A stretch of DNA of 64,000 nucleotides. Origin: Uranotaenia lowii (taxonomy: Eukaryota; Arthropoda; Insecta; Diptera; Culicidae). Numbering within the stretch: position 1 is the stretch's first letter; every line of letters starts with the position of its first letter. The translations under genes were made by a program, and so were the position numbers. Location: contig NC_073693.1 of assembly GCF_029784155.1 (NCBI RefSeq), positions 221,291,770-221,355,769 on the forward strand, read 5' to 3'. The notes beneath the pieces were generated by a model. That model made no database searches. It saw only the letters and a list, made by a program, of their open reading frames with translations, and was not told the DNA's origin. Positions 1-54,533 of the stretch are shown here, piece after piece.

Positions 1-2709
1 TGATCTAGTAGAGGTATGTGACAATGGCAGTGGCGTCGAGGAACGAAATTTCATCGGACTAACAGCCAAGTACCACACTTCGAAGTTGCGAGAATTTTCC
101 GATTTGGCGAGTATCGAAACCTTTGGATTTCGAGGGGAAGCTCTGAGTTCGCTGTGCGCCTTGTCGGATATGGTCATTGTAACTAAGCATGAGACAGCCT
201 CTCATGGCACAAAATTAGAACTCAACCATAACGGTGAAATCACAAGGAAAAGTCCCTGTGCGAGGTCAACTGGAACAACGGTATCGTTGACTAATTTGTT
301 TTCGACTTTACCTGTCCGCAGAAAAGAATTTCAGAAAAATATCAAAAGAGAATTTATAAAAATGTGCCAGATTCTACAGGCATATTGTTTAGTTTCCGTC
401 GGCGTCAGAGTAATTTGCACCAACCATAGCAAAAAAAGTGGCAAAACGATTATCATGAGCACGCAGGGAACGGGAACAGTAATAGATAACATTTCAACGG
501 TGTTTGGGTCAAAACAAACCTTAGAACTAGTACCTCTAAAGCCAGCGATTGGGAGAAATGGGAAAATCATTGATTTGAATGAAAGCGATTTCGATGATAG
601 CATTTCGTTAACTCAGGAAGAAATGGATAATCTCAATCTTTCTAGATACACTATTGACGGTTACATTTCGAGTTGTGCACATGGGTCAGGTCGTAGCTCC
701 AAGGATCGCCAATTCTTTTACGTAAATTCGAGACCATGCGAGCCAAAACAGATAATCAAGATGGTTAATGAAACCTATCATAAATATAACCCTAGCCAAA
801 ATCCGTTCGTTTATCTCAACCTCAAAATGCAACGTTCTGAAGTAGATGTTAATCTTACACCAGATAAACGACAAATTTTGGTGAACAATGAAAAAATTCT
901 ACTGTTAGCATTGAAAAAATCGTTACTGAAGACATATGGTAACATTCCATCTACCTATAAAATGCAGAATCTAGACTTGAGCACAACTACTCGTTTGTTG
1001 AATATTTCTTTCGCATCGGATAACGCTGATGACACGGATAAAGAACAGGATAAGAGCTTAACGACGCCCGACACCCCCAATCTTTCGACTACCTTCAATC
1101 AATGGAAAGCCTCCGAAAAGGCCGCAGACAACTCACCGCGGAAACCGACTACATTAAAACGAAAACGAGAGGAATTGCCAAAAATAAGTAGCTTTCTTGA
1201 TGTTGGATCGAATCGGGTCTCCCAAATATCACGGGCGGGCTCCCACGATGATAATGATGATGATGAGCTCAAGTCGCTTCCTAAGATAGCTTGTCGTACA
1301 ACGTTGGTTGGTGGAAGCGAGAGTGATAACATTGCGGATCATGTAGATGATTCTAATGATGCGCAACGTAAGGTTGCAGTTGCAGAACCTCAAGAAGCTG
1401 ATATCGGGAGGTGCTATGAAAAAGGTAGGTTGCATATTGAAAAGCTTTCAGAATATATATGCACTACCATTATCAAGAATTAATTTTCAAAATCAGTTGG
1501 TAGTATTTCTATATATAATTGAGAAATGTACGCTTTACGGGATTTATTATATAAGTATAAGAAAAACATAAATTAAATTTGGTTTCATATGATTATCTAT
1601 GATTAGATAATTCTTGTAAATTTAACACTGGATATTTGCGTTTTAATTCACCGCTTTCTTTCGTTTTCAGATTTTTGCAAAAAATTAAGTGTAACAAGAT
1701 GTATTAATAAAATTCCTGTTGTGGGTCCGGTTTTGAAATTTGAAAATATTTTATCACCCAACAAAGAAAAGGAATCTGAATCGAATAGCCCTCAGAAGCA
1801 AACCATACTAGAAAGCATTACAGTAGAAGATGCCAGTCACCATTCAGATGAATCGTTATATGGTAATAGGAGCGTTCAAATCGATCTACCATCTTTGGCG
1901 AAACTGATTGAACAAGAAAAAGAGATCGCTGAGCGGGAAGAAGAGTCACGTAAATGCAGCTTGAGTCGACTGAAGTTTAAAAGCAAAATCAATCCCGCCA
2001 GCAATCGATCGGCCGAAGACGAGCTTCAAATGGAAATATCCAAGGATAAATTTGCTCAGATGGAAATAATTGGTCAGTTCAATTTGGGGTTCATCATTGC
2101 GAGGCTAGATCTGGACCTGTTCATTATCGATCAGCATGCAACGGATGAAAAGTACAATTTTGAAGATCTTCAGCGGACGACTATTCTACAAAATCAAAAA
2201 CTAGTTGTACCCCAACAGCTTGAACTGACGGCGGTAAACGAAATGATTCTTATGGACAATCTGGAAATTTTCGAAATGAACGGGTTCAAGTTTGAGCTGG
2301 ACGGTTCGGCCGAGCCAACCAGGAAAGTCAAACTTCTAGCTAAACCATTCAGCAAGAACTGGGAGTTCGGGAAGGAAGACATCGATGAGCTAATTTTTAT
2401 GCTGCAGGATGCCCCGAATACAGTGTGTCGCCCATCGAGGGTGCGAGCAATGTTTGCCTCCCGAGCTTGTCGAAAATCGGTCATGATCGGAAAAGCACTT
2501 TCCATCGGCGAAATGCGAAAGTTGGTGAGCCATATGGGTGAAATCGAGCAACCTTGGGTGGGTGCACGTATTTGTGTTCAATGTGAGATAGATCAACTAG
2601 AATATTTTTTTTTTAGAATTGTCCCCATGGTAGACCAACAATGCGACATCTGGTCAATCTTTCCATGATCGAGCAGATCGAAGAATCAAATGAAAGTAAA
2701 GAGGATTGA
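1..2709 (+). CDS. PMS2: DNA mismatch repair protein PMS2 (MutL homologue), 5' end outside the window
   Basis: Three exons, 1-1424, 1671-2557 and 2617-2709, join in frame (introns 1425-1670 and 2558-2616, both GT...AG). The frame is open from base 2, so the start codon lies upstream. Visible are the GHKL ATPase motifs DNGSG and GFRGEA near the left edge, the MutL transducer domain, a long acidic low-conservation linker, and the C-terminal endonuclease domain with [12 protein letters not shown] (about 2131-2166) and the zinc-site stretch [18 protein letters not shown]. The last small exon encodes the conserved [10 protein letters not shown] motif, which confirms the 59-bp intron. The family partners MLH1 and nicks the nascent strand during mismatch repair. 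All catalytic motifs visible here are intact and no frameshift is seen. The gene ends 118 bp from the converging GRWD1 stop codon. Confidence 0.96.
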
Positions 2710-2827
2710 AGTTCTGTCTCTAGGTAAGTGATATTTGAAACTTTTATTTTTGAAAATAATATAAACGATATACAAGCTGTACCGATAAAATGGTAAATAT
2801 CTGAAGTGACAAAAAAGAAAGCCGTGT

Positions 2828-4262
2828 TTAAACACTGATGGTTCTGAAAACATTAAATCCACTGTGGGCCGTGGACAGTATAACTCCTTTCAGCTGCGGG
2901 TGCCAGTGTAATTCCTTGATTTCGTTCTGACCCTGGTGAATGAATAGCAGTTGTGGCGGCAAATCTTTGAGCTGTGGATCGTTCCGTTCGGTATCGTCGT
3001 CACGCTCTACCGAGAGATCCCACATGGCAATTTGATCGTCGTCACCACCCGAGGCCAGTATCGTTGATTCCTTCGGATGCCACTCGACCGTTGTTATGTG
3101 ATTCGTGTGGTGTTTGAACGTTGCAACTACCGACTTGGATTGAAAATGACGAAGGTCCCAAATGTTAAGAACACCATCATCGCCACCTGAAATTTTGTAT
3201 AAGGAATGTTGAAAAATGTTTTCGTTGCACGATTGATATGTAATTACCACTTGCTAGCAATGGTTCATTTCTATTCCAACTGATAACATTGACGTCACTT
3301 TCGTGAGAATTTTCAGCTGTAAGCATGCAAGCCTTCGAGGGGGGCGCTCTTACATCCCAGATCCTAATGGATTTGTCCACGGAGCAGCTGGCCAACACAT
3401 TTGGCTCGTTTGGACTCCACTGGATATCCTCAACAGAATCCGTGTGCCCAACCAGTGGCCGTTGGTCGACGGTCCAAGCGCCTTTGTCATTCGGTTTCCA
3501 AATGTGTATATCTCGGCGGCAATCTCCAGTAGCTAACATGCCGCGCGTTGTAGTGCACCAATCGAGGGCAAATCCTTCCTTCTGATGGCCAGAAAAGGTA
3601 AAATCTGGTTTAACGTCATCTCCGACCTTGTTCTTTTCGTACGTTTTACAAGCATGTTCATCATCTACAGCCGCCAATTGATCGCTTATGTTATAAATAT
3701 GTACACGACCCATTTCACTCCAACTGGCCACGTAATGCGTATTATTGAACGTTGTAGCCCGAATCCTATTGACGCATCCAGCATGTTTGATCAATGCACA
3801 GTTCATCTGTGGCTTTTCGTCCTCATCATCTGCATATTCTTCATCAGAGTCCGATTCTTCGTCCTCATCTCGCTCCTTAGAGGTTCTGTGAAGATTGGAC
3901 ATTTTCATTACAATTACGCTATTGACATGGGTCCGGGCTGCTTGGGTGCCGGCTACCAGAAAGGCAGTCAATGGAAACGTTTCTCGATCTTCTCCCAGCG
4001 GATCCTGTATGATATCGAAACTCAAACACGGAGCTCCGGTATGTGCTTGGTGTAGCATCACGTAAGCAGATTCATCACACACCAGCTCCTCGTCGTTGTT
4101 CAGCTTCCGACCGGGTAGGTATACCTGATCTTTATCATCTTCGTTATTCTCCATGGCATCATCTTCCTGATCTTCGTCGTCATCGCTAGCACCGGCTATC
4201 ACTGCATCTTCGATGTTCTGGTCCTCGGCCACCTCCATTCGCTCTTCATCTTGGGATGACAT
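2828..4262 (-). CDS. GRWD1: Glutamate-rich WD repeat protein 1 (GRWD1), complete, two exons
   Basis: Exon 1 is 4262-3248 and exon 2 is 3186-2828; the 61-bp intron 3247-3187 has GT...AG ends and joins SG to GDDG in frame, giving 457 residues, close to the family length. The N-terminus is very acidic (runs of D and E over about 45 residues), followed by a conserved GRWD N-terminal block (PGRKLNNDEELVCDESAY) and WD40 repeats with the DVR/DLR and IWD signatures, for example SVDKSIRIWDVRAPP and GGDDGVLNIWDLRHF. It ends in the family-typical SGFNVFRTISV. GRWD1 is a nuclear and nucleolar histone-binding and ribosome-biogenesis factor. The start is the first Met of the open frame, before the acidic region. 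It converges on PMS2. Confidence 0.96.
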
Positions 4263-4485
4263 TTTGGTTGGATGATTGCAAACTTTACTTTCGAGATAAA
4301 TAGCTTAAAAAGACGCTATAGTTTCCAAATAATTGAAAACGTCGATGCTAAGCAGCATGTGAACCCGGCAGCAATTTTTTACAGACTTTGGCGGCGCACA
4401 TGTTTTTATTATTGACAAACGTGACGCTTCGGTGACGGTTACAAAAGGTGCGCCATCTGCTTGTGAAATTTTACGCTAGAATGTA

Positions 4486-5455
4486 CACGGAAAATAAAAA
4501 AAAGGTAAAATTTACCTTTTTGCGAGGTGAATTTTTTCCAACCCTCTTTCGAGGTAAATTTTACCTTTTTTTCATTCACCTAACAAAAAGGTAAATTTTA
4601 CCTTTTTTCAATTTATCTAGCAAAAAGGTAAATTTTACCTTTTTCGCATTCACCTAGCAAAATAATAAATAATACCGTTTTCCCATTTACTGATTTAAAA
4701 GGTAAATGCTGGTTGGTTTGATTGTTTTCTTCAATAAGAATTAAAAAAATACAAAATTCTTTCAAATATGATATTTATTGGAGATAAATAGAGACTGGTA
4801 ATTCGGCTTCGCGTTCTTCTGAGCCGCTATGACCGCTGAATCCACCTGCGTTGCGTTCATTCATGGCCTCCTCCGTTCGACTAATCCGGTCAGGTTCGGC
4901 TTTTCCGGCTGGAGGATGACGTGGAATACACCTCAAAGCTCTATGGGCCGATCTGAAACAAAATCAATAGTATTATGACGAGAACCAGCACAACTAAATG
5001 ATATTTAAGAACACTTACCATTCTATTCCGATTTTCACATATTAGGCACAAAGCAAAACTTGTTCCTAGAATGACAAAACAGCTTAACCTCAATGAACGG
5101 GTTCGGCGAATAGTTACTTTTTTTTAAGAAGAATTGTACCGTTTTGTTTAGCTCAATCCAGGTCAATTACACCTCGCTACGAGGTAAGTTTTACCTTATT
5201 TGGATTTACCTTTTTTTCTAGCTGAATTATACTTTTTTTCGAGCTCAATTCACCTCGCTACGAGGTAAGATTTACCTTTTTTGGATTCACCTTTTTTCTC
5301 GGTGAATTGTACCTTTTTTCCAACCTCGATTCAGGTAAGTTTTACCTCACTGTGAGGTGAGTTTCACCTCGAAGAGGTAGAAGTTACCTTTTTGGCTTTC
5401 ACGAGCGTTCACCTTTGCTAACTCGGTAAATTTTACCTTTTTATTATTTTCCGTG
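4486..5455 (-). mobile_element. Family A element, copy 1 (GGTAAAATTTACC-palindrome transposon)
   Basis: The ends are inverted repeats beginning CACGGAAAATAA, and both termini carry several copies of the 13-bp palindrome GGTAAAATTTACC embedded in A- and T-runs. TA precedes the left end at 4484-4485; the right flank reads AT, so the duplication has probably decayed. The interior, on the minus strand, has two gene-like blocks separated by a 66-bp GT...AG interval (5018-4953) and a poly(A)-signal-like AATAAA near 4777. No transposase is present, so it is non-autonomous. Its internal order matches copies at 5638 and 7165, the latter in opposite orientation. Confidence 0.8.
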
Positions 5456-5637
5456 ATTTGTTTTTTGTATATGGTATACTCACGATTGCATTTGTATGTG
5501 TGCAACCGGTGCAATCAGCTGATTTGACTTATGCACGTTGAGATTTTAGACCTCAGTTTTTGACTCCTAACGCAACCCTACGCGCGAAATTTCTCGTTCA
5601 ACAATGATCCGCATTAATTGGGGAAAGGTAACTTCTA

Positions 5638-6687
5638 CACGGAAAATAAAAAAAAGGTAAAATTTACCTTTTTGCGAGGTGATTTTTTTTCACCCAGCTT
5701 TCTCGGTAAATTTTAACTTTTTTTCATTCACCTAGCAAAAAGGTAAGTTTTACCTTTTTTCAATTCACCTAGCAAAAAGGTGAATTTTACCTTTTTTGCA
5801 TTCACCTAGCAAAATAGTAAATAATACCGTTACCCCACCCTCTGATTTAAAAGGTAAATGTTAACTGGGTTTGGTTGGTTTCTTCCATAAAAATAAAACA
5901 GAATTCGTTCAAGAATTGGTATTTATTAAAGATAATAGGGACTTTTACCTTTATAATTAATGTTGGAATGCAGAAAATTATTGTTGCTTCCTCACGGTCA
6001 CCTTCTTTGAGTTCTTCCGAAGAACGTTGGCCGCTGAATCCTCTTGCAATCCTTCACGTCCCGCTCTTCCGGAATGATCTGTGTGATGTTCCGGAATGTC
6101 GGCCAATCTGTAACAAAAGCAAAGTATTATGACGAGAACCAGCTCTATTAAAGAAATCTAAGAAAACATTTACCGTTCTGTTCCGATTTTCACATATTGG
6201 GCACAAAGCAAAACTTGTTCCTGAATGACAAAACAGCTTAACCTCAATAAACGGGTTCGGCAAATTGTTACCTTTTTTCAAGATGAACTGTACCGTTTTG
6301 TTTAGCTCAATCCAAGTCAACTTCACCTCGCTACGAGGTAAGTTTTACCTTTTTTGATTAACCTTTTTTCTAGGGGGCCGTTCAAATATTACGTAACGTA
6401 ATTTTCGGTCATTCTGAACCACCCCCCACCCCCCTAAGTAACACATTCGTCTTAGATTTTCTATCCTAGTTCCACTAATCGTAACAAACTCTTATACCCC
6501 TCCCCCCCCAACCTCGATTCAGGTAAATTTTACCGCACTGTGAGGTGAGTTTCACCTCGAAGAGGTAGAAGTTACCTTTTTGGCTTTCACGAGCCGTTTT
6601 GCTAGGTGAAATAAAAAAAAGGTAGAATTTACCCTTTCGCTAGGTGAATGAAAAAAGGTAAAATTTACCTCGAAAGAAGGGTCATTG
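5638..6687 (-). mobile_element. Family A element, copy 2, rearranged at its right end
   Basis: It starts with TA + CACGGAAAATAAAA and repeats the palindromic motif as in copy 1. The interior on the minus strand again shows a candidate 66-bp intron (6173-6108, GTAAAT...CAG). The frame upstream of it is open for about 50 codons (6326 down to the donor) and ends in ALCPICENRNR, with a Cys-x-x-Cys pair. The right end is abnormal: after the block ending at about 6594 the sequence returns to an inverted left-end module (6596-6687) and the outer CACGG terminus is missing, so the copy is a rearranged tandem or was truncated. It carries a further insertion at 6374-6509. Confidence 0.72.
6374..6509. 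mobile_element. Short insertion with GGGGGCCGTTCAAATATTACG end
   Basis: Relative to copy 1, family A copy 2 is interrupted here by about 136 bp starting GGGGGCCGTTCAAATATTAC and ending in a C-rich run preceded by TTATACCCC. It replaces the segment CGGTGAATTGTACC of the empty site. This looks like a small MITE of the type common in mosquito genomes. No coding capacity. Confidence 0.5.
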
Positions 6688-7164
6688 AAGTAACTACAAG
6701 TTGCCAGCAAAGTCCAGTCTAGTCAAAACATTACTAATATATAGTCCGCAGCAGCACCGATTTCAAGCAAAATTGAATAGGTTCCTCTACATATCACCCC
6801 AGGTTCCAATTGCGTTTTACTTCAGTACTACATGCAATTTCGAAGGGAATTATTGGAGTTTAAGGTAAATACAATCTTTTTTAATGTTAAAAATTATGAG
6901 ATTACAAAACAACGTTAGCGCCAAGTAAAAGATGTGAAAGGTCGTAAGAACATTTTCAGTGAAAATAGTTAAACTGATGGCTATATCCAATGCACTTCCA
7001 TATTCTTAATGCATTTCGGCTGCGTATTCCGAAATTTTAAACAATATTTGATTATATTTAAAATACTAGAATTAAAAATGTGTTTGAAAACTTCGTCAGC
7101 GAATTTCTCGAAACAGATAAGGTGGCTCATACGACCTAATCAAAACAAACTCTAGAAATACTTA
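6688..7164. other. Intergenic sequence between two family A copies
   Basis: AT-rich, no open frame of note and no repeat motif recognised. It is the spacer between the rearranged end of copy 2 and the left terminus of copy 3. Confidence 0.6.
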
Positions 7165-7668
7165 CACGGAAAATAATAAAAAGGTAAAATTTACCGAGTT
7201 AGCAAAGGTGAACGCTCGTGAAAGCCAAAAATGTAACTTCTACCTCTTCGAGGTGAAACTCACCTCACAGCGAGGTAAAATTTACCTGAATCGAGGTTGG
7301 AAAAAAGGTACAATTCACCGAGAAAAAAGGTGAATCCAAAAAAGGTAAATCTTACCTCGTAGCGAGGTGAAGTTCACCTGAATTGAGCTCAATAAAAAAG
7401 TATAATTCACCTAGAAAAAAAGGTAAATCCAAATAAGGTAAAACTTACCTCGTAGCGAGGTGAAATTGACCTGGATTGAGCTAAACAAAACTGTACAATA
7501 ATTCATCTCGAACAAAAGTAACTATTCGCCGAATCCGTTAATTGAGGTTAAGCTGTTTTGCCGTTCAGAAGGGAAGTTATGTTTCGTGCCAATATGAGAA
7601 AATCGGAACAGAATGGTAAGTTTTTTCTTAGATATCATTTAGTTGTGCTGGTTCTCGTCATAATACTA

Positions 7669-8381
7669 CACTCAGAGGAAATCTTATTATAAATTTCATA
7701 AGATACATCTTATGAACCACTTTTTTGCGTCCAAACTAATTTTCCATAAGAGTCTTATGAAATTCTTTCAATTTTCGTACGATGTTCTTATGAAAAATAG
7801 AAGCAACGGCATTGTGAAAAAATGATGAACACATTCATTCATAGCATCAGTTTTTTTTCATCATCTAACAGTACGAAGCAATCGCCAGTTCAAAGTTATT
7901 ATAGTTTTCCTTCAATGTTCAATGTTATTGTTATCTCCGGAATGGTAAGTTCGATTCGATGTTTTTGGTGTGAACGTTGAATACATTAGTAAACTAAAAT
8001 ACATTATTTGTTTACTTTTCAGCAAGCTGATCGGCAAAAAACGAAAGGTCGAAGATTAAGATGCGGCAAGAAAAAACTTTGATGGAGTCGTCTGTTGATG
8101 CACTGCTGATGGTGACCATGGAGGATTTAATTTTAAACAAATTTGGCAAACAATAAAGTGAATGTTTTCAGCATGAAATATCGAGAATTTTTCTAATTAG
8201 AAAGTGATTTACTGTTTCCATAAGAATCTCTTATGAAAAGCAACAACCTCTCATTGAAGTAGGCGTTCATCTTCAGAATTCATTCGCGTCATAAGACAAT
8301 CTTATGAATTTCATTAATTTTTCTTATGGCGCCACTTCATAAGAGAATCTTATGGCATACATAATAGTATTTTTCTGAGTG
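7669..8381 (+). mobile_element. Family B element, copy 1 (CATAAGA...TCTTATG palindromes), nested in family A copy 3
   Basis: TA target duplication (7667-7668 and 8382-8383) and inverted ends CACTCAGA. The empty site is seen in family A copy 1, where the same intron continues without interruption, proving insertion. Several palindromes are present near both ends: CATAAGATACATCTTATG, CATAAGAGTCTTATG and CATAAGAATCTCTTATG. The interior holds an exon-like block ending CCGGAATG, a 78-bp GT...AG intron (7945-8022) and a second exon with AATAAA just after a 31-codon ORF. No transposase. Confidence 0.88.
8061..8156 (+). CDS. 31-codon ORF in family B copy 1 (equivalents at 11635-11540 and 13105-13203)
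   Basis: It begins MRQEKTLMESSVD and ends LILNKFGKQ, directly followed by AATAAAG as a possible poly(A) signal. The same ORF is intact in all three family B copies: 31 aa on the minus strand at 11635-11540 and 32 aa at 13105-13203, where an extra ACG codon keeps the frame. Differences among copies include E/K, S/P, A/V and E/K changes. It lies in the exon downstream of the 78-bp intron. A second short frame crosses the splice junction (MFNVIVISGM|QADRQK...). Whether any peptide is made is unknown; three young copies cannot prove selection. Confidence 0.3.
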   Translation: MRQEKTLMESSVDALLMVTMEDLILNKFGKQ

Positions 8382-8918
8382 TATGCTTTTGTTTCAGATC
8401 GGCCCAGCTTCGAGGTATATTTCACTTCATCCTCCAGATATCTTTCCGGAAAAGCCGGATCTGACTGGATTAATCGCCATTATGGGGCGGAGAAACGTGA
8501 AGCTGAATTGTCACGAGCCTGGCGAAAAAGGATTTACTTTATTTAAAGGATTTAAAGGATTTTTTTTAAATACGGTGATATGTACATTACAAAAATAAAT
8601 ATAACGAATAGTCCCTATTTATTTCAAATAAATATAAATATTTGAATGAATTTTGTTTTCATTTTTATTTAAGAAACCAACCAAACAAAATAGCATTTAC
8701 TTTTTAAATCAGTGAAAGGGAAAACGGTATTATTTACTTTTTTGCTAGGTGAATGTGAAAATGGTAAAATTTACCTTTTTGCCAGGTGAATTGAAAAAAG
8801 GTAATATTTACCTTTTTGCTAGGTGAATGAAAAAAAGGTAAAATTTACCTCGAAAGAGGGGTGGAAAAAATTCACCTCGCAAAAAGGTAAATTTTACCTT
8901 TTTGTTATTTTCCGTGTA

Positions 8919-11194
8919 TATTTTTCAAAAACTCACCTTTGCTGCATTTCATGGCTGTGAAACTAGGTAGAATAGTTGTGGAATGGTTGGAAGATTATTT
9001 TTGAACTGATTTCCTTGTTCAAAACCCTTTAAAATTGGTTTCATTTAAATTCCCTGAATTTTCACTGCGAAATATTTTTTCCGCGTTCACTGACATTCCG
9101 CTCGAAGTGTAAACACACTGAGCAAACGTGGAAAACGTAAAACGAACAACAGTGGTGGGTGAATATAAATTCCATGTTCATTTTCACGTCCGAATGGATG
9201 TGCATTCTGAAAGAATTGCTCCATAAAAATTTGTTTTTAAATTGCAAGCACATTTGAAGGCAATTAAAGACCAAAAAAAACTAAGAGTTTGAAATGAAAC
9301 GCATACGATAGTTTATTTTTAATTTAAAACCCGCTTGGGCATCATTTAGTTGTACCTGTTTGAATAGTTTCTCCACGAATAAATGTAAATGAGGATCATG
9401 CGAATGGCCTGAGTCCATTGAAAAAAACATAGATACCGCTCTGTATAAATATGTACTTCAGAAAAAGTATGGAGAAAATTTTGAGGCAAACGAAGCGAAT
9501 ATCAGTAAGCCTGGTTGTATGATTGTTTTTGTGCATTCAACTATAAATATGATAGACTCAACTATAATGTACGATTGATGTCATACATACAACAATAATT
9601 ATAGTAGATTCAACTATAATTATATGATTGGATATATGATTTTATTATAAATATGATAGATTCAACTATAATAGTATAATTGATTCAATTATAAATATGA
9701 TAGATGCATAAATAGGTTATGAAAATAATTTTAAATATAAGTAAAATTTTGAAGAATTTGTGTCTTTGTTTCATTTAATTTGGTGACTAACCAGAACAGT
9801 TTTTAAGAGTTCAAGAGTTAAAAATCTTTTAGAAGGCGAATGGCAAATTTGTACATAATCAAGAAGTGTTCCCAACTTTATGGAAACATTAAGACATTGG
9901 ATTTGTTACTTAATAATATGTTTTTAATATTTATTTATTATGAGAGTCCTTGCATTGACATGGGAATCGTCTATCAATACAATATATCATCAAATTTTGT
10001 AAAAAAATATTAGTCAATGAAATAAATTATCTAATTATACCAAAACGCTTCCGTATATTAATTATTTACAAAAATACTTCAAGGATTGTAAAAATTTTGT
10101 CAATTGTTTGTTAATTTTGTATGGGAGCCCCCCTCCCCCCTTCCCCGTTTGTGGATTCGGAGAGGTTTGAAAGTATTTAAGAAACCATTTCCAGAAAATT
10201 TTGATTCTATTTCTCTTTCAATCCTTTTAAACATGAATGATATACAACACCAAAGGATATAAAATTGAGAAAACAATATTGTTGCTTTTTCAATACATGT
10301 CTGTTGTTGTTTTTTTATTTTGAAAAAAAAAAAATCAAAAATAGAATTTTATGTATGCCATCAACGACAAAAAAAAACATTAAACTTTTTCAGTCTTACA
10401 ACCTTATTCAATTGTTTTTTTTTTCAAATCAGTTTTCTTTCTTTAATTAAAAAAAATGAACAATTTGGAACTTCAGAGGTTGAAGATAAAAAATTCAAAA
10501 CCATTTGCTGGTGTAAATTAAGGCGTAGGAGGGCAAATTAGTGAACATTTTTCAAAAAATGTTTCCTCTATATTTCATTACGTATAGCTCAAATTTCTGA
10601 AGTGTACAGTAGATAAATAATCAACAAATTTAAACTCAAAACTCTTAATAACTCAACAAAAGTGAAATTTGCCCTAGGATTTGCTAGTTACATGTGTTTG
10701 AGTTTGGAGGACCGACTTTTCTTCCACCTAGGCCTGTTTTGAAAATTCCACTAGGAAAATTTCTAGCTTTTCGAGCGTTTTCATGCATTTTGGTAGAGTT
10801 TTTTGCCGCTTGGGGGTCCCCCGTAAGACCGCGCATAATCAGATAGCGATACATTGTTTGATGACAGAGATACGCACGAAATAAAATTGCATGTTTCGCA
10901 TGATCCCAAACCTTTTGCCGAAACACCATACTGAGCACCCCTTAGCCCAAACTTTTGATCGATACCTGAAGTAGTTATTTTAACTAGCACTTTGCAAATT
11001 TTTTGAACAAAATGTGACATATGTGTTTTGATATTTATTTAAAAAAAATTCGAATGCAACTAGAATTTTGAAATTTTGTCCATCCCACCCTGAGCTCATC
11101 GGGTTTAAAATTAGAGTGTAAATTTTTTCAAAATTTCCAACTATAAGCCGATCAAAAGAAATGCGATAACTGAGATATGGCCGAACAAATTTGA
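8919..11194. other. AT-rich intergenic region with a degenerate tandem repeat
   Basis: No supported gene. At about 9530-9710 a degenerate repeat of the type GATTCAACTATAATTATATG recurs five or six times. Short open frames around 10265-10541 are low complexity (poly-A/T) and not credible. At 10901-10925 the sequence ATCCCAAACCTTTTGCCG resembles the mariner/Tc1 end found at 11211-11235. Confidence 0.55.
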
Positions 11195-11235
11195 TTGTTT
11201 TTGAGGGGGTGATCCCAAACTTATGGCCGGCAGTG
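11195..11235 (-). mobile_element. Terminal fragment of a Tc1/mariner-type element
   Basis: The string GATCCCAAACTTATGGCC, then GGCAGTG next to TA (11236-11237), matches the typical terminal inverted repeat style of Tc1/mariner elements (CACTGCCGGCC... read inward). No matching left terminus was found, so this is a solo or truncated end. Confidence 0.5.
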
Positions 11236-11314
11236 TATACGATCAGCAAATTCGAATTCAACTTTGTAGGTATAGTATCCTGACCTACGATTTAAAGGTC
11301 TTCAGTAAGTACCT

Positions 11315-12023
11315 CACTCAGAAAAATACTATTATGTATGCCATAAGATTCTCTTATGAAGTGGCGCCATAAGAAAAATTAATGAAATTCATAAGATTGT
11401 CTTATGACGCGAATGAATTCTGAAGATGAACGCCTACTTCAATGAGAGGTTGTTGCTTTTCATAAGAGATTCTTATGGAAACAGTAAATCACTTTCTAAT
11501 AAGAAAAAATCTCGATATTTCATGCTGAAAACATTCACTTTATTGTTTGCCAAATTTGTTTAAAATTAAATCCTCCATGGTCACCATCAGCAGTACATCA
11601 ACAGACGGCTCCATCAAAGTTTTTTTTTGCCGCATCTTAATCTTCGACCTTTCGTTTTTTCAGCTCGCTGAAAAGTAAACAAATAATGTATTTTAGATTA
11701 CTAATCTATTCAACGTTCACACCAAAAACATCAAATCAAACTTACCATTCCGGAGATAACAATAACATTTAACATTGAAGGAAAACTGTAATAACTATGA
11801 ACTGGCAATTGCTTTGTACTGTTAGATGATGAAAAAAAAAACTGATGCTATGAATGAATGTGTTCATCATTTTTTCACAATGCCGTTTCTTCTATTTTTC
11901 ATAAGAACATCGTACGAAAATTGAAAGAATTTCATAAGACTCTTATGAAAAATTAGTTTGGACGCAAAAAAGTGGTTCATAAGATGTATCTTATGAAATT
12001 TATAATAAGATTTCCTCTGAGTG
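11315..12023 (-). mobile_element. Family B element, copy 2
   Basis: Full-length copy in reverse orientation: CACTCAGAAAAATACT at the left and ...CTCTGAGTG at the right, 709 bp. The internal intron (11745-11668, 78 bp) and 31-codon ORF (11635-11540) are preserved. The dinucleotide flanking both ends is CT rather than TA, so either the target duplication is not strictly TA or both flanks have changed. Confidence 0.85.
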
Positions 12024-12145
12024 CTCAATAAAAGTTATTTGGTGAAATTCGGTCCAGGGAATTGCAAGTTACAGCTGTTTCTAGTAAATCAAATTTAATT
12101 TCTTTTTCAAGTTTAATTAGTATAAAATTCAGGTAAAATATTCAG

Positions 12146-13733
12146 TTAGGCTTCCGCTTTTCCAAATCCGAATTGCCGGGCCTTACGCTTAACACCTGCC
12201 ATGAGATTTTGTACAGCCACCTTGTCCACCTTCTTCGTCGCAGAAAGCCAGTTTGCCTTAAACTGCTGCTCCTCCTTAGCAGTTTTTTTGGTCTTCTTTA
12301 GGTTCCGCTTGACGATAGCCCAGTATTTCTCAATTGGGCGGAGCTCTGGCGTGTTGGGAGGGTTCTTGTCCTTGGGAACCACCTGCACGTTGTTGGCGGC
12401 GTACCACTCCATGGCCTTTTTACCATAACGGCAAGATGCCAAATTCGGCCAAAACAGTACGGACCAACCGTGTTTCTTCAGGAAAGGCAACAGACGTTTA
12501 TTCAAACACTCTTTCACGTAAATTTTTGGTTGACAGTCCCGGAAGCTACGAAAATGCTGCTTTTCAAGCCACAGGTACAGATGGCTTGCCAAACCAGATA
12601 TTTCTTCGCGAACTTTGACAGTTTCATGTGCTTGAAATTATCTGCTACCTTTCCCCTTCCTTTTGCCGTAAAAAACTCTTGTCCCGGAAGCTGCTTGTAG
12701 TCGGCTTTGACGTACACTCAGAGGAAATCTTATTATAAATTTCATAAGATACATCTTATGAACCACTTTTTTGCGTCCAAACTAATTTTTCATAAGAGTC
12801 TTATGAAATTCTTTCAATTTTCATACGATGTTCTTATGAAAAATAGAAGAAACGGCATTGTGAAAAAAATGATGAACACATTCATTCACATCAGTTTTTT
12901 TTCATCATCTAACAGTACGAAGCAATCGCCAGTTCATAGTTATTATAGTTTCCCTTCAATGTTAAATGTTATTGTTATCTCCGGAATGGTAAGTTCGATT
13001 TGATGTTTTTGGTGTGAACGTTGAATATATTAGTAAACCAAAATACATTATTTGTTTACTTTTCAGCAAGCTGATAGGCAAAAAACGAAAGGTTGAAGAT
13101 TAAGATGCGGCAAAAAAAAACTTTGATGGAGCCGTCTGTTGATGCGCTGCTGATGGTGACGACCATGAAGGATTTAATTTTAAACAAATTTGGCAAACAA
13201 TAAAGTGAATGTTTTCAGCATGAAATATCGAGAATTTTTCTTATTAGAAAGTGATTTACCTATAGGTTTCGTCGTCCATTACCACGCAGTCAAACTTCGT
13301 CAGCATCGTCGTGTACATCCTCCGGGATCGCGCTTTGGCCGTTGTATTTTGTTTATCATCGCGATTTGGAGTCACTACCTTCTTGTAAGTCGATAGTCCG
13401 GCTCGTTTTTTGGCTCGATGCACGGTTGTAGACGATACACCCAGCTTATTTGCGGCATCTCGGAGAGAGGGTAGGGTTGCGCTTGAACCTACCGGCAACT
13501 CTCTTTGTCGTCTCAGCGGCTTCTGGTTTTCGATTTCCCCCCGATCCAGACTTCCTGGCTGTTGAGAAACGTTCTTCAAACACTTTAATTACATTTTTAA
13601 CGGTTGATTTGGCAACTTTTAGCGATTTTGCCAGCTTTGCGTGCGAGTAGCTCGGATTTTCGCGATGCGCGATCAAAATTTTGATACGCTGCTCTTCTTC
13701 CTTGAAGGGAATTTTAACAACTGAAGAGTGCAT
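12146..13733 (-). pseudogene. DD37E mariner-type transposase, broken (ITmD37E-like)
   Basis: Read on the minus strand from Met 13733 (MHSSVVKIPFKEEEQRIKIL), it shows a helix-turn-helix N-terminal half, then the first catalytic Asp in CVVMDDETY, and, after an inserted family B copy (12715-13262), VKADYKQLPGQEFF. The second catalytic position reads WPNLASC where the family has WPDLASC, and the Glu is in LRPIEKYW, 37 residues further on, which defines DD37E. Besides the insertion there are at least two single-base frameshifts, near 13490 (NPTLS) and 12525 (VNQK|IYVKE). The Asp-to-Asn change alone would abolish catalysis. The outer inverted repeats were not located. Confidence 0.85.
12715..13262 (+). 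mobile_element. Family B element, copy 3, inserted in the DD37E transposase gene
   Basis: It begins TA + CACTCAGAGGAAATC at the left and splits the conserved DDETY|VKADYKQ codons of the transposase, so the empty site is known. The intron (12989-13066, 78 bp) and the ORF (13105-13203, 32 aa) are present. The copy stops at GTGATTTACC, where other copies continue for some 140 bp to the right terminus, so its right terminal repeat is missing although TA still abuts the host sequence at 13263-13264. Confidence 0.85.
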
Positions 13734-13797
13734 TCCAAAATCAAAATAGGAGCAACATTCTAAAAACACACACACACCTTCAAAATGAGGGTTAACA

Positions 13798-16243: not shown

Positions 16244-19200
16244 TTAATTGCTTCCCATCGTACTGACAAGATGCAAATTCTGCAACTGATGATGATAATT
16301 GCCCAGATGACCATCGGATTCGGCATCCATCATATGGCTGTGGATATGAAGATTGTGATTCTGGAAATGTAACTGCTGATGTCCCACCAGATGATTATGC
16401 TCTTGTTGATGCTGATGATGGTGGTGATGTTGCGTTTGGCTAAGCACTCTCATGGATCGAGTTTCCGCAAACGTGGGATTCGATTCATCTCTGGTAGCTG
16501 AAAATGATCCTTTATCAGCTTTACAGCCGCCAGATGTCTGACTGACTGACGATGGTGGTTGAGGCGAGAAGTTAGGTGATTTGATATTTTGATTTGTCGG
16601 CGTCACTTCGGTTCTGTTTCGACTTTCGGAAACTGTCGCGGAAAGCAGCTTGGGTTTGGTAGCCTCTAGTGGTTGAACCGGCTGGAAAACGAAGGGCCAA
16701 GCCTGGAACGGAAATCGAAGGATGAAACTGGTAAGATGGTGGTGATCCAATATTAATTTGTTTGTTTTGTTGTGTATGCAAATTGGATTCCAGCAGCAGT
16801 AACATTGAGATTGAGCGATTCAAGTGTTTCCTGTAGTTCTTTTGAGTTTGAAACTGGATACTTTTTGAGACCTTCTTTACCCTAAATAAATAGGAGGCAA
16901 GTTTGGCTGACTTTTTTTTTTTTTCGTTTTATCTAAAGTCATGTTTGATTAATAAATGGACCTATGAAATTCAGGAATTTATCCTTCAATTATTGCCAAG
17001 ATGAGTGAAGTCACCGTTTTTTATCTGACTTCAAACTTAAAATTTAAACTCTGATATGGAGTTTGATTTCTGAATTCAGAAATATTAATCTGAATTTTGA
17101 ATTTCAATTCTGAATCTGAATTCTGAATTCTTCCTTGATTCAAAATTCAGATTCAGATTCAGAATTCAGATTCAGAATTCAGATTCAGAATTCAGATTCA
17201 GAATTCAGATTCAGAATTCAGATTCAGAATTCAGATCCAGAATTCAGATTCAGAATTCAGATTCAGAATTCAGATTCAGAATTCAGATTCAGAATTCAGA
17301 TTCAGAATTCAGATTCAGAATTCAGATTCAGAATTCAGATTCAGAATTCAGATTCAGAATTCAGATTCAGAATTCAGATTCAGAATTCAGATTCAGAATT
17401 CAGATTCAGAATTCAGATTCAGAATTCAGATTCAGAATTCAGATTCAGAATTCAGATTCAGAATTCAGATTCAGAATTCAGATTCAGAATTCAGATTCAG
17501 AATTCAGATTCAGAATTCAGATTCAGAATTCAGATTCAGAATTCAGATTCAGAATTCAGATTCAGAATTCAGATTCAGAATTCAGATTCAGAATTCAGAT
17601 TCAGAATTCAGATTCAGAATTCAGATTCAGAATTCAGATTCAGAATTCAGATTCAGAATTCAGATTCAGAATTCAGATTCAGAATTCAGATTCAGAATTC
17701 AGATTCAGAATTCAGATTCAGAATTCAGATTCAGAATTCAGATTCAGAATTCAGATTCAGAATTCAGATTCAGAATTCAGATTCAGAATTCAGATTCTAT
17801 GAAATTATTTTGTCGGCTATATCGGTGAAATTTTATATTCTTTGAGGAAGAATATTTAAGAATTGAAAAAATATAGACGGATAGAAGATTAGAATAAGGT
17901 GAAAGATGTTGAAAATGAGCGGAAGGGTAATTTTAATTTGAAAAACTTTTCATCACATTTCATCAATTTGTTCCTCACGGGCCTACTACCTTGCAGTGGT
18001 TGATACCGATAGAGCTGTAGCAACCACCACACAATAGTAGGCCTAGCGTGGTTCGTCCCACAAGTGGAAACACACGTCTGGAGTATACGTGTTCACCACA
18101 TGTAGACTTCGGACCAACCAGATTTCATTGTATAGGTTAAGGTAGTGCCACCTCTATCCCGGTACTACTTCTCCTAAATAATGAAATGTTGCAGGGTAAA
18201 GTATGGTGTACGTTAATAAGTTTCCTCGCAAAAATGCTCTTTCGCTCTTTTCAACATCTGTAAATTTTCTCCTCACTTCTCTATCCATCTTTATCAATTT
18301 CAGAACTACTTTTCACCGATATGCCGAAAAATAAATTTACAGAATTCAGATTCAGAATTCAGATTCAGAATTCAGATTCAGAATTCAGATTCAGAATTCA
18401 GATTCAGAATTCAGATTCAGAATTCAGATTCAGAATTCAGATTCAGAATTCAGATTCAGAATTCAGATTCAGAATTCAGATTCAGAATTCAGATTCAGAA
18501 TTCAGATTCAGAATTCAGATTCAGAATTCAGATTCAGAATTCAGATTCAGAATTCAGATTCAGAATTCTGATTCAGTATTCAGATTCAGAATTCAGATTC
18601 AGAATTCAGATTCAGAATTTAGATTCAGTATTCAGATTCAGATTCAGAATTCAGATTCAGAATTCAGAATTCAGAATTCAGATTCAGATTCAGAAATAAA
18701 TGACGCCTAGATGTGATTTGTTGTCTAAAAAATATAAATTTAGTTCTGATGCTAATGAAATAATGGTATGACACTTTGCAGACAATTGAAAAAAATACTG
18801 AAAGTAAAAAATTCACATACAATTTTTTAACCTATTCGCCTACAAGGTTATTTTTTAATCATATTTATAACAGAAATATGAATAAGATGTTTTCTAGAGA
18901 GGTAGATCGGAAACATTTTGTTGAACATGTAAAAATATGCTTAACTGAAGTTTTATCAAGCGGCATTTAAATGTGTGGAAGGTATCAGTGAAATAAATTG
19001 ATTTTTATTGACCAAGAGGGAGGGAATTCATTTTCCGAAACAATTTTCATTCAAGGAGCATATTCAAACGTTCAACTTTTCTCTGCTACAAAAAAAAATA
19101 TGTTTCTTCTAGGAATTGTTACTTCGGCCCAAATACACAACGACACTGACGCATCTCAGAATAAGATTTGCATTTACACTTGCCCCAATATACGGGACAA

Positions 19201-31200: not shown

Positions 31201-34200
31201 GTTTTTGACAGCGAAATTGTTCGTGAATTATCCAAGCAAAGTATTTAGAATCGGTGGGCATTATGGTGTTAATGCAATTTGGACACGGCGAAACAATTAT
31301 TTAAGCTGCTACGACGCATTCAAGAAAAACTTATATTCACAAGTCTGAACTAACAGATAAGTACCATATTCTATACCTGAAAGGTCGAGGTAAAATGTTT
31401 CTTTATTCTAAAATAAAACCCCAAAATTTTGAAAATCTGTAAAAATATAGTAAGTTATAGTTTGATTTAAGTCATCAAGTTTTAAATTAAATTCTCACTT
31501 TTACCGTATTCGTTTGCTCCACTCGCTCAGTTTTGCACCCATCCCGACAAAAACGAACACAAATCGTCGTCAGTGTATTACACTCAGTCATACGCGCATC
31601 TGCAACACCAGTAATGCGTGACCTAGGATAAAACTGAGCATAAACGAATAAGCTATCAATTTCAAAAATGACTAAGTATTAACAATTTATGTTTGTATTT
31701 ATGTAATACAAAATTGTTGTTTGGTTATTTGTTAGGTTATTTTAATGAGAAAAAAACGACATGTGAACATAAAATTATTCGCCATGTTACCATTTTTTAA
31801 GGTTAACTGAAAAAGGAGTTAATATGTTGAACAAACGAAACAAGGATTTTTTAAAAAGAAATCTAGAACTAATATTACTAATGAATTTGAGTACGTAAGC
31901 TTGCAAGTTTTTGATTTTACTTATGATATCGTTAACGAGTTTTTTTTTAATTTTATGAAGGATTAATCACCGTAATTTATATTTCTAGATTTAATTTATC
32001 GGTGGCCCGTGAGGAACAAAAATTTGATATGTGATGATATGCTTCTAAATAAATTCTACCCGCTCATTTTCAACATCTTTCATTTCATCTAACCTTCTAT
32101 CCACCTAAATGAAAAAAATCATAATCTTTAGATGTCCCTACTAAAAAGGACATCACTTTTCACCGCTAGGCCGATAAATTTAATCTACAGTTTTTTTAAG
32201 TTTTTAATTTTAATTTGAATAATATTATTATTAACACATCAATCTATTTTCATAAAAATTCATCTACAATAACAGTTTTCACAATTTTGAAAAAGTCTGA
32301 TTATGTTTGAAGAAAAATATATAAGTTATTTTTTCGTGGTTATGTTTCACAAAAAGTTTATAAGATTTCAATTACATTTCATTATAAATTCATCGACGCG
32401 ATAGAGAAATCAGTTGGGGCAATCAGCTAGTTTAATTGGAATTCTCATTTTTATCATTTGAATTGCCACTGCCATTGCCTCAATATATGGGAATTTCCTT
32501 TAGAAATATAAAGGAGTGTTGGAGGTGTAGGTCAACCAAAATCGCACCATTTTTCCAAAAATGGCTCCTGATTCAATCCTCTCCCTTACTAAAACAATCT
32601 TTCCTGAGATACTTGAATATAGATTCGCAGACGTATAGACGGTTTCTATAGCTGGTAATACTGAATTATCATTGTTTCAGAGTTATTCAAAACAAGCTTT
32701 TGAAGAAAACTGGAATAACAGATTTATTGTTGATATGGAATAACAGATTTATGGTTGATCAGATTTATGGTTGAAATTCGAAATGCATTGAATGATTTGA
32801 TACAATATAATATTAATTTTCTATTGAAACCATGAGAAAATGGTGGTATTTTTGAAGATGAATTAAAGCATTTCGGGCTTAATGATTTAAGGTGGATATG
32901 AGTAGTCAAACAAGCTAAACTAAGCTAAGCTAAAATAATTTGAGAATGGTCGACTAGTAAATGTTACGCTGAATGAGGGAGATTTGCTTAAGTAGAGGAT
33001 AATTTATAAAAAAAGTACCTCATAATCAACAGTATAAAACTTGGGTTAAATTTGTTGGAAAAGTTTCATTTCGAATTTTAGAATTTCAGACTATAATTAG
33101 AATGAGAATTCAACAGTGGAACCAAGTGAATATTGCGATTTCCGATGTTTTTCCTTTATTTTTCATATTTTTTTATTTCAGTAACTCCTAGTTCGAGCTC
33201 AAGAGTAAACATCGAACACGGTTGTACCGGATAAGTTTTTCAATAGCTGTACGCCAACTGCATCGTCGTTGATATAAGTCGCAAATAACACAAAGATGTT
33301 AAAATCAATTTTTGAAACATTGGCATCAAAAATGCTGGTTTGCCCAATGTAATAAAGTTTTGTATGTAGTTTAGTTTTTTTTTAATTTCTTACTAACCTA
33401 TATTTCTTTGAGGTCTCGAATATTAAGCTAAAATCAGAAACCGGAATTAATTTAATGATTTTGTTGTTTCGATTATAGCCGTTTTACCATCTTTATGGCA
33501 TTCGCGACTTTATACCAACGTTGCAGTTGGTAGACTGCCCCAAATTTGTATGGGAAATTTAAAACCTGTGAAATGTTATGCGCTGCAGGCTAAAATTGAT
33601 TCTAGGCCTAGTTCAAGATCTCATGCCAAATTTGGGCCAGATCGGATCACGGGAAGGGGTCGCTCAACGAGCCTGAAGTTTGTATGGGATTTTGAGACAT
33701 TTTGTTCGGGGGAAACATGAAAAAACCTGTTTTCCATCAATAACATTGGTTCCCGTCGGTCGATTTCTTTCAAAAACGGTTTTTCTTAAAGCCTACATTA
33801 TGAAAAATATTTCATCCGAAGACTGTGTATCGATAAGAGTTGAGATAAAAAAGTTATTGGGCTTCAAAAAATGGGCTAACTTTTTAAGGATGGTATTCAT
33901 CACTGTTAATGAGTCTGGGCGGTCGAGCATATTAACAGTGATGAATACCACCGTAAAAAAGTTAGCCCATTTTTTGAAGCCTAATCACTTTTTTATCTTA
34001 ACTCTTATCGAAATGCAGTCTTCCGATGAAATATGTTTCATAATTTAGGCTTTAAGAAAAACAGTTTTTGAAAGAAATCGGCCAACGGGAACCAAAGTTA
34101 TTGATTTTTTTTGTTTCGATTATAGTCGTTTTACCATCTTTATGGCATTCGCGACTTTATCAACGTTGCAGTTGGTGGATCGTTATTGAAAAACTTATCC

Positions 34201-39479: not shown

Positions 39480-40964
39480 TTGAGTGGAATGAGCGTAAAC
39501 AAAGCTGCCCCCGAGGGGGCAGCGGCTACAAACAATAATGATAACCTCAAACCAGTTCATACTCCGGACGACCAAGAGATGGTAGATATCATTAAAAACA
39601 TGAATGACCAACATAATCAACCTGATCAAGTAAGTCAAAATGAATTAGAAATAGAACCGGTGAGAAAAGTATACCAGAAATTTAATTACTGCGAAACAGA
39701 TAGTAGACCATACAGAGTTATTGTAGAGAACACAGACCTGAAAAGAAGAAAATATATTAATAGGCTTCAAATTGGGATTGTATTGAATCAATTAGGCTTC
39801 GACAAATGTATTGACGACATAAAAAAAACCGGACGTAATAAAGCTACTGTTTATGTTGGAAACATGAAGGATGCCAACAGATTAGCTGACTGTCAGAGTT
39901 TACTCTTGAAAGGATACAAATCGTACATCCCCAAAAAGTTTGTTACGGTAACGGGAGTTATTTCCGATATCCCTTTAGAACTGAATCCTAATGAAATTTT
40001 TGAAAATGTGATTTGTGATGTCAAAGTGGAATCAGTGTTCAGAATGACAAGGAGATATAACGAGGAAAGGATCCCAACCAACCGAGTAGGTATTGTGTTC
40101 AGAAGTAATATGTTGCCAAGGTATGTAAGATTGTTTTCTGTGATAAATCGAGTCGAACCATTCATACCACGTCCTATTATATGTTTTAAGTGTCTTAGGT
40201 ACAACCATCTATCCAAAAACTGCCAAAGTTCCGTACTTAGATGTAATAACTGCACTGACGAAGCGAATGATGGACACGAGCCATGTCCAAAGATAGCATA
40301 TTGCTTTCACTGTAAAAAAGAGGGCCACATTACCACGGACAGGACCTGTCCCCAGCGCAAAAAGGAAACGGAAACACTAGCGATTATGGCGAGACGAAAT
40401 GTGACGTACCAAGAGGCGAGAGAATTATTTAATATTCCAACAATCAATCAATTTGATGCACTTAGAAACGCAGAAGACTTCCCCGCTCTACCTGAAACCT
40501 TTGCTCAGGTATTAGCTAGTGGAAATCAAGGGCGATCAACAAACTTTAGAAAAATGAACGAATCTACAATAAATTCAAAAAACAATTTCCAGAAACAAAA
40601 TAAACAGTTCACAAATAATAGAAATACAAAAACAAAAGAAATGGAAGAAGAAGAAGCAGGGGTAGCTAGTTTATTGGGTATGTCTAAAAGAGATTTTTTG
40701 AAAAAAAGGAGGCTTGAAGAAGAAGAGGGAGAACAAATTAGCAAAAGAGTTAACAACAATCATCGCACTTCGGAAGCTGATAGATTTAGACACGAAATTA
40801 AAACACAAATTGTAATGAAACAAGACCATGAAACGTTGATTGCAGGTATAATAGGAAAAATTGCTAAGATCCTTCAAAATCATGGTATAGCAGGCGAAGA
40901 AATTACAGCCAGCATTGTTGGGGAGCTGAAAAACATTGCTGGAGGCCACAGAGATGGCACATAA
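39480..40964 (+). CDS. ORF1 (Gag-like nucleic-acid-binding protein) of the I-clade element
   Basis: 494 residues. The N-terminal third is acidic and polar; the middle (about residues 70-220) resembles the RNA-recognition region of LINE ORF1 proteins. Zinc knuckles follow at about residues 235-295: CFKCLRYNHLSKNC (CX2CX4HX4C), a CNNC...HEPC motif and CFHCKKEGHITTDRTC. The C-terminal part is Lys/Glu-rich. ORF1 proteins bind the element RNA and form the retrotransposition particle. The Met follows a short UTR, and ORF2 begins 12 bp after the stop, suggesting translation coupling or reinitiation. Confidence 0.88.
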   Translation: MSGMSVNKAAPEGAAATNNNDNLKPVHTPDDQEMVDIIKNMNDQHNQPDQVSQNELEIEPVRKVYQKFNYCETDSRPYRVIVENTDLKRRKYINRLQIGIVLNQLGFDKCIDDIKKTGRNKATVYVGNMKDANRLADCQSLLLKGYKSYIPKKFVTVTGVISDIPLELNPNEIFENVICDVKVESVFRMTRRYNEERIPTNRVGIVFRSNMLPRYVRLFSVINRVEPFIPRPIICFKCLRYNHLSKNCQSSVLRCNNCTDEANDGHEPCPKIAYCFHCKKEGHITTDRTCPQRKKETETLAIMARRNVTYQEARELFNIPTINQFDALRNAEDFPALPETFAQVLASGNQGRSTNFRKMNESTINSKNNFQKQNKQFTNNRNTKTKEMEEEEAGVASLLGMSKRDFLKKRRLEEEEGEQISKRVNNNHRTSEADRFRHEIKTQIVMKQDHETLIAGIIGKIAKILQNHGIAGEEITASIVGELKNIAGGHRDGT

Positions 40965-40976
40965 ATAAATATAACC

Positions 40977-54033: not shown

Positions 54034-54533
54034 NNNNNNNNNNNNNNNNNNNNNNNNNNNNNNNNNNNNNNNNNNNNNNNNNNNNNNNNNNNNNNNNNNN
54101 NNNNNNNNNNNNNNNNNNNNNNNNNNNNNNNNNNNNNNNNNNNNNNNNNNNNNNNNNNNNNNNNNNNNNNNNNNNNNNNNNNNNNNNNNNNNNNNNNNNN
54201 NNNNNNNNNNNNNNNNNNNNNNNNNNNNNNNNNNNNNNNNNNNNNNNNNNNNNNNNNNNNNNNNNNNNNNNNNNNNNNNNNNNNNNNNNNNNNNNNNNNN
54301 NNNNNNNNNNNNNNNNNNNNNNNNNNNNNNNNNNNNNNNNNNNNNNNNNNNNNNNNNNNNNNNNNNNNNNNNNNNNNNNNNNNNNNNNNNNNNNNNNNNN
54401 NNNNNNNNNNNNNNNNNNNNNNNNNNNNNNNNNNNNNNNNNNNNNNNNNNNNNNNNNNNNNNNNNNNNNNNNNNNNNNNNNNNNNNNNNNNNNNNNNNNN
54501 NNNNNNNNNNNNNNNNNNNNNNNNNNNNNNNNN
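54034..54533. other. Assembly gap, 500 N
   Basis: Exactly 500 N, the usual placeholder for a gap of unknown size. Gene order across it should be treated with caution. Confidence 0.99.

What the first reader, a model, noticed from the sequence alone, without database searches (positions are those of the whole stretch)
4486..13262. Two unrelated TA-flanked element families share one design: end-clustered palindromes plus an intron-bearing mini-gene
Families A (4486, 5638, 7165) and B (7669, 11315, 12715) have different sequences but the same plan. Each is bounded by inverted ends starting CAC, with TA duplications at the clear sites. Each is packed near both ends with a family-specific palindrome (GGTAAAATTTACC in A; CATAAGA...TCTTATG in B). 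Each carries an interior unit of exon, short intron, exon and AATAAA. Intron length is constant within family (66, 66 and about 67 bp in A; 78 bp in all three B copies), and donor and acceptor are conserved in all six. Ordinary MITEs do not keep a spliceable transcription unit. The units may be internally deleted autonomous elements retaining first and last exons, or a distinct class using repeated palindromes as binding sites.
Basis: partly seen in the sequence, partly recalled or inferred. Interest (0 to 1): 0.78.

Follow-up and report, generated by a model that had tools for sequence, protein, structure and literature searches.

The report
Mini-transposons carrying a spliceable gene remnant
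These are copies of two abundant families of short DNA transposons in an insect-like genome; each still carries what looks like the two-exon stump of a lost gene, which is worth a note but fits ordinary transposon decay.

Summary
The observation largely holds. A and B are two high-copy families (about 970 and 713 bp) with CAC..GTG ends, arrays of family-specific half-sites near both ends (26 against 1.7 expected in A, 12 against 0.14 in B) and an interior GT-AG intron plus AATAAA, rarely found in shuffles (36 and 6 of 2000).

Corrections: the target duplication is 2 bp but not only TA (TA in 9 of 17 matched A sites and 22 of 31 matched B sites). In the window B2 has CT, A1 has no matching duplication, A2 and B3 lack an end, and B1 is nested in A3's intron.

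Best reading: internally deleted derivatives keeping exon 1, intron, scraps of exon 2 and the poly(A) signal, mobilised by a transposase that binds the half-sites (B half-sites 84/84 conserved against 163/198 elsewhere). No autonomous partner was found. The ISL2EU family, and the three Transposase_21 families, whose ends I could see have other ends. Superfamily is open; CMC-like by termini. No reading frame is kept across subfamilies, so selection for a peptide is unlikely. Splicing is untested.

The parts
4486..5455 (-). Element A1 (family A), unit on the minus strand
   Evidence: End motifs at both ends; about 98.8% to the A consensus; flanks TA and AT, no matching duplication
4953..5018 (-). 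Intron of A1, 66 bp
   Evidence: Sequence; consensus intron
4774..4779 (-). AATAAA of A1
   Evidence: Sequence, read by eye; distance from the acceptor (consensus)
5638..6690 (-). Element A2 (diverged family A relative); inner end truncated or scrambled, with a foreign insert near 6375-6507; 6690 is my working limit, not a shown end
   Evidence: One end motif only; alignment
6108..6173 (-). Intron of A2, 66 bp
7165..8916 (+). Element A3 (family A subfamily), split by B1
   Evidence: End motifs at both ends and TA on both sides; alignment
7616..8397 (+). Intron of A3, 67 bp when B1 and one TA are left out
7669..8381 (+). Element B1, inserted in the intron of A3 with TA duplicated
   Evidence: empty-site comparison with L076 and L077
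7945..8022 (+). Intron of B1, 78 bp
8152..8157 (+). AATAAA of B1
   Evidence: Sequence, read by eye
11315..12023 (-). Element B2, target duplication CT
   Evidence: CT tally
11668..11745 (-). Intron of B2, 78 bp
12715..13262 (+). Element B3, right terminal part missing, lying within a Tc1/mariner-like transposase gene; right limit approximate
   Evidence: Left end motif only; D9 repeat ends at 13259; ORFs on both sides (gene named by eye)
12989..13066 (+). Intron of B3, 78 bp

Best explanation
Families A and B are two non-autonomous, cut-and-paste DNA transposon families (large MITEs) that arose by internal deletion of longer elements. SHOWN: each has CAC..GTG ends, a 2-bp target duplication that favours TA, and clustered half-sites at both ends. 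INFERRED: a transposase supplied in trans binds the repeated half-sites, pairs the ends and moves the element. What was kept between the ends is the first exon (probably mostly untranslated), the first intron, scraps of coding sequence from the start and end of the lost gene, and the poly(A) signal. These still look like a gene because the 5' and 3' regions lie close to the ends and are copied with them. Copies may be transcribed and spliced, but nothing here shows that the transcript does anything.
For: Ends and 2-bp duplications; half-site arrays and their conservation in B; high copy number and near identity; direct empty site for B1; subfamilies share ends, exon 1 and intron but differ by deletions in exon 2; in B relative L105 exon 2 begins right after the acceptor with MLTGKKRKVEESDAAKKLRWN in a 73-residue frame, and related frames ending LLMVTM..K or LLMMTM..K stop at the AATAAA in the B consensus and L098, which reads as the start and end of a lost protein.
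Against: No element with these ends and a transposase gene was found: the 34-residue B'' start had 2 matches; the A exon-2 peptide had 149 matches (150 of 607 candidates scored), with open frames up to 143 residues, apart from one of 235 whose flank reads N. No Pfam match above cut-off for the pieces (one sub-threshold hit, PF04082, E 0.056). The frame spanning the junction is not the same in all subfamilies, so the claim that the scraps are coding remnants rests mainly on L105. Conservation is not simply coding-like: the intron is more alike than exon 1 in A3 (95% against 83%) and in L105 (89% against 74%), less in A2 (86% against 92%).
Confidence: 0.68

Rival explanations
1. The unit is a working mini-gene kept by selection: it makes a short nuclear peptide (a truncated DNA-binding part of the transposase) that binds the half-sites and represses or helps transposition, as the KP product does for P elements (recalled).
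For: Unrelated families share the layout; splice sites and AATAAA are kept in 10 of 11 subfamily representatives; L105 has a 73-residue frame with KKRKV, L107 a 72-residue frame, A3 61 and 67, L109 77 and 86, the B consensus 60.
Against: The abundant A1 consensus is closed in all three phases (38, 7, 7 codons stop to stop), A2 has no start in any, and the phases that are open differ between subfamilies. Most copies are too young to tell selection from recent spread.
Confidence: 0.1
2. The unit is kept for its RNA or DNA, not for a peptide: exon 1 and intron hold cis signals (promoter, enhancer, or further transposase contacts) that spreading copies need, and splicing is incidental.
For: The intron is as conserved as, or more conserved than, exon 1 in several comparisons (95/83, 89/74, 73/59, 69/55%) and more than A exon 2.
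Against: A2 shows the opposite order (86/92%); alignments are few, not independent, and misplace the donor in B'; no motif was tested in the intron.
Confidence: 0.15
3. The exon-intron-exon reading is a coincidence in A-T rich repeats.
For: 36 of 2000 shuffles of A contain such a unit; I found no transcript data.
Against: 6 of 2000 for B; both families have it; donor and acceptor are kept in diverged subfamilies.
Confidence: 0.07

Closest known systems
Animal CACTA/EnSpm relatives (TRC elements) and the wider CMC/CMCT group
   Same: CA..TG type ends and 2 to 5 bp duplications are given for CMCT, and CAC..GTG for EnSpm (PMC12730594, passages); 2-bp duplications for animal TRC elements including one in Aedes aegypti, and spliced transcripts thought to come from truncated copies (PMC1636069, passages). 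Repeats near the ends as transposase sites are recalled for plant Spm.
   Different: TRC ends start CCC; the three Transposase_21 families here whose ends I could see (L096/L100, L097/L101, L098/L102; 6 of 15 matching places) end in CAATTG (left) or CGGG (right), not CAC..GTG. No A or B transposase is known.
Tc1/mariner-derived TA MITEs of mosquitoes
   Same: Short, high copy, TA favoured (recalled for these MITEs).
   Different: 8 of 17 matched A sites and 9 of 31 matched B sites are not TA, whereas Tc1/mariner duplications are TA (recalled).
ISL2EU (PHIS group)
   Same: 2-bp duplication.
   Different: AT duplications and GG ends in print (PMC4482050, passages); the family here with visible ends starts AT|AGGAGGCGG in 4 of 4 loci shown; A and B consensus found no match in the 17 PF13613 loci.

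Membership tests
MITE (non-autonomous short TIR element) | Short, high copy, defined ends, target duplication, no transposase | tested here: met
   970 and 713 bp consensus; 2501 and 2203 first-look candidates, 40 scored each; ends and duplications; longest junction-spanning frame in the two consensus sequences 67 codons stop to stop
Tc1/mariner | TA as the only target duplication | tested here: not met
   17 of 48 matched sites are not TA; that TA is strict is recalled
ISL2EU | AT duplication and GG ends (PMC4482050 passages) | tested here: not met
CMC/EnSpm (CACTA) | CAC..GTG ends and 2-4 bp duplication | tested here: met
   definition from passages of PMC12730594 and PMC4482050. Not specific on its own
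CMC/EnSpm (CACTA) | Transposase of this kind carried by, or sharing ends with, the elements | tested here: inconclusive
   PF02992 gives 15 matches; 7 of the 15 places were fetched; 6 show an end and none is CAC..GTG; no end was found for L099; 8 places not examined
Deletion derivative of a given autonomous element | A longer element with the same ends and matching first and last exons | tested here: inconclusive
   Not found with two peptide searches and stretches behind 20 A3-type 5' halves; the searches score only part of the candidates

The most novel reading that the evidence does not exclude
Two unrelated transposon families have converged on the same kit: end arrays of dyad binding sites plus a self-contained, intron-bearing mini-gene whose spliced product (a short nuclear DNA-binding peptide or an RNA) controls the family's own transposition, so that these are regulated selfish cassettes, not dead remnants.
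Probability: 0.08. Interest if true: 0.7.

Novelty: new member of a known kind. Interest (0 to 1): 0.33.

Why it matters
If the deletion reading holds, these families are fossils that keep the 5' gene structure of their unknown parent, so exon 1, intron and half-sites are handles for finding the transposase and for placing CAC..GTG, 2-bp elements of insects. If the mini-gene reading held, it would be a transposon family carrying its own regulator. The 2-bp, TA-favouring but not TA-only duplication also warns that such families may be filed as Tc1/mariner by mistake.

Tried and rejected
ISL2EU: first suggested by the 2-bp duplication and a fancied THAP-like stretch in A exon 1. PF13613 gave 17 matches; none of those loci matches A or B, visible ends are AT|AGGAGGCGG, and Pfam finds no THAP in the A peptides. 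Rejected.

Transposase_21 element as parent of B: L098 carries a unit 67.7% identical to B, 2.5 kb from a Transposase_21 frame and in the same orientation. I first took it for the parent. It lies inside a stretch shared by two copies (L098 and L102, 99.8% over 1-5983), whose right end is CGGG, and it is related to B' elements found elsewhere. Rejected as coincidence of nesting. The left limit of that stretch was not reached (L103 read by eye only).

Long frames behind A exon 2: C2:224338718, C1:114646541 and C2:212984025 were fetched (L107-L109); they hold A-type short elements, partly replaced or interrupted, no transposase-length frame in the stretches fetched.

Foldback at 33648-34398 as a third family: long inverted arms, no such unit seen by eye. 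Rejected.

Literature: eight searches. A search for the end motifs as text found 83 papers, 20 listed; I saw none on transposons among the 20 titles. No paper on these two families was seen in these listings; that is not proof that none exists.

Unanswered: genome searches with joined exons, meant to find intronless copies, a search with the L098 transposase and one with whole L105 all met a busy machine. A long list of other busy answers concerned requests that were later answered.

Known flaws: the A consensus was built with two of 21 rows in the wrong orientation (L011, L023, about 50% identity); it is a majority consensus and the other 19 rows lie at 0.986-0.995. A first try had seven wrong rows and was replaced. 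The half-site sets were defined on the A and B consensus.
Full report
WHAT WAS CHECKED. Three very long contigs (216, 437, 370 Mb) and insect-type transposons make a mosquito likely; this is inference. The finding concerns six elements between 4486 and 13262.

THE ELEMENTS ARE REAL. Exact end motifs lie at all six start points. Element A1 is one of a large family: the genome search gave 2501 first-look candidates and scored 40, the best 96-98% identical over the whole 970 bp. B1 likewise: 2203 candidates, 40 scored, 97-100%. The B consensus from 25 complete copies is 713 bp (copies 98.2-99.9% identical to it); the A consensus is 970 bp from 21 rows, two of them in the wrong orientation. These counts are lower bounds or rough, as the tool says.

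ENDS AND TARGET. Both families have CAC..GTG ends. The duplication is 2 bp and favours TA, but not strictly: A 9 TA of 17 matched (22 end pairs), B 22 TA of 31 matched (35 end pairs); three matching bases occur in 2 of 22 and 0 of 35 pairs. For B1 the empty site is seen directly: A3-type copies L076 and L077 read ACTATGC where A3 has ACTA[B1]TATGC. So B moved after A3 had arrived. In the window B2 has a CT duplication, A1 has TA on one side and AT on the other, A2 and B3 have only one end.

END ARRAYS. Across B subfamilies they are better kept than their surroundings: 84/84 against 163/198 in L105 (p 2e-6), 81/84 against 161/198 in L104 (p 6e-4), but 70/84 against 151/198 in the decayed L106 (p 0.21). 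In A the trend is weak: of 8 comparisons one has p below 0.01. The spacer of the B dyads varies while the half-sites stay, as expected of protein-binding sites; that a transposase binds them is inference.

THE INTERIOR UNIT. Donor GTAAGT, an acceptor ending TTTCAG, and AATAAA follow each other in 10 of 11 subfamily representatives; A introns are 65-69 bp, B and B'' 78, B' 67; L106 has lost the pair. Among copies both dinucleotides are intact in 19 of 21 (A1), 5 of 5 (other A), 30 of 30 (B). Shuffles meet a rule of this kind in 36 and 6 of 2000 cases; the rule was set after the fact. A curious shared detail is that exon 1 ends in ATG, or once ATTG and once ACG, just before GTAAGT or GTAAAT.

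IS IT CODING? In B relative L105 exon 2 opens with MLTGKKRKVEESDAAKKLRWN in a 73-residue frame. In L104 the same start is followed by MLTGNKRKVKDPDV and a stop after 29 residues. In the abundant B the start codon reads AAG and the frame stops after KLIGKKRKVED; its longest junction frame (60 residues) is in another phase, which the relatives do not keep. Frames ending LLMVTMKDLILNKFGKQ (B) and LLMMTMHEVIPHKFAIK (L098) stop at the AATAAA. In L098 start-like and end-like parts are in one frame, so a complete micropeptide of about 40 residues is not excluded. In A the A1 consensus is closed in all phases; A3, L107 and L109 have frames of 61 to 86 residues in one or two phases; A2 has no start. 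Pfam finds nothing above cut-off. I read this as remnants of the two ends of a lost protein, with L105 nearest to the original; no constraint on a peptide is shown.

Conservation by segment does not look like a gene under coding constraint. Between A1 and A3: 5' region 97%, exon 1 83%, intron 95%, exon 2 64%, 3' UTR 83%, 3' region 94%. Between A1 and A2: 73 (includes a foreign insert and a scrambled end), 92, 86, 44, 83 and 90%. Between B and L105: 86, 74, 89, 80, 89%; L104: 83, 59, 73, 74, 87%; L106: 79, 55, 69, 72, 79% (5' region, exon 1, intron, exon 2, 3' part; the alignment misplaces the donor in B').

SEARCH FOR A PARENT. Three lines failed. (1) PF13613 loci are ISL2EU-like (second gene and THAP part named by eye); visible ends differ and neither A nor B matches them. 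(2) PF02992 gives 15 places with open frames of 289-842 residues. Seven places were fetched. Where comparison of two copies shows an end it is CAATTG.. (left, L096/L100) or ..CGGG (right, L097/L101 and L098/L102), not CAC..GTG. A B-like unit beside the L098 gene looked like the proof, but turned out to be a nested B' piece. (3) Peptide searches: 2 matches for the L105 start (61 candidates, all scored); 149 for A exon 2 (150 of 607 scored), longest open frame 143 residues apart from one of 235 whose neighbourhood reads N. The parent may be absent, too diverged, or simply not reached.

PLACE AMONG KNOWN THINGS. CAC..GTG ends and a 2-bp duplication fit the CMC/EnSpm group in print (PMC12730594, PMC4482050, PMC4298943, PMC1636069: passages seen) better than Tc1/mariner or ISL2EU; but ends alone do not prove membership and the transposase test is open. 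Spliced transcripts thought to come from truncated copies are in print for the animal CACTA element SmTRC1, so a spliceable deletion derivative is not a new kind of thing.

VERDICT. A sound observation with minor errors; interpretation partly supported; two MITE families of unsettled superfamily that keep a gene stump. Interest 0.33. The bold reading, a selected mini-gene controlling the family, is not excluded (0.08).

Noticed in passing
window 39480-44582: Two long overlapping open frames (494 and 1201 codons), the second with reverse-transcriptase-like sequence by eye: a nearly intact LINE-type retrotransposon.
   Followed up: no
window 17135-18710: Tandem repeat kept open over long frames, translating as repeated RFRIQIQNSDSEF.
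   Followed up: no
window 12146-13775: Tc1/mariner-like transposase frames (named by eye) on both sides of B3.
   Followed up: partly
window 6375-6507: A G/C-rich insert (GGGGGCCGTTCAAATATTACGTAACG...) inside A2, with no counterpart in the A consensus.
   Followed up: no
window 33648-34398: Element with long inverted arms and matching outer flanks, foldback-like.
   Followed up: no
window 54034-54533: Run of 500 N.
   Followed up: no
L064, L065, L066, L070, L074; L071-L073: ISL2EU-like families with long open transposase and nuclease-like frames and copies 94-99.9% identical over long stretches, so recently active.
   Followed up: partly
L098, L102 (also L096, L097): Transposase_21 elements with frames of 634-705 codons; L098 seems to carry a second, divergently transcribed spliced gene (by eye) and ends in CGGG, as TRC elements with CCC ends would.
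   Followed up: partly
L106 74-1151 (reverse strand): A B' element followed within 20 bases by a diverged A element; L022, L023 and L028 hold clusters of A copies.
   Followed up: partly
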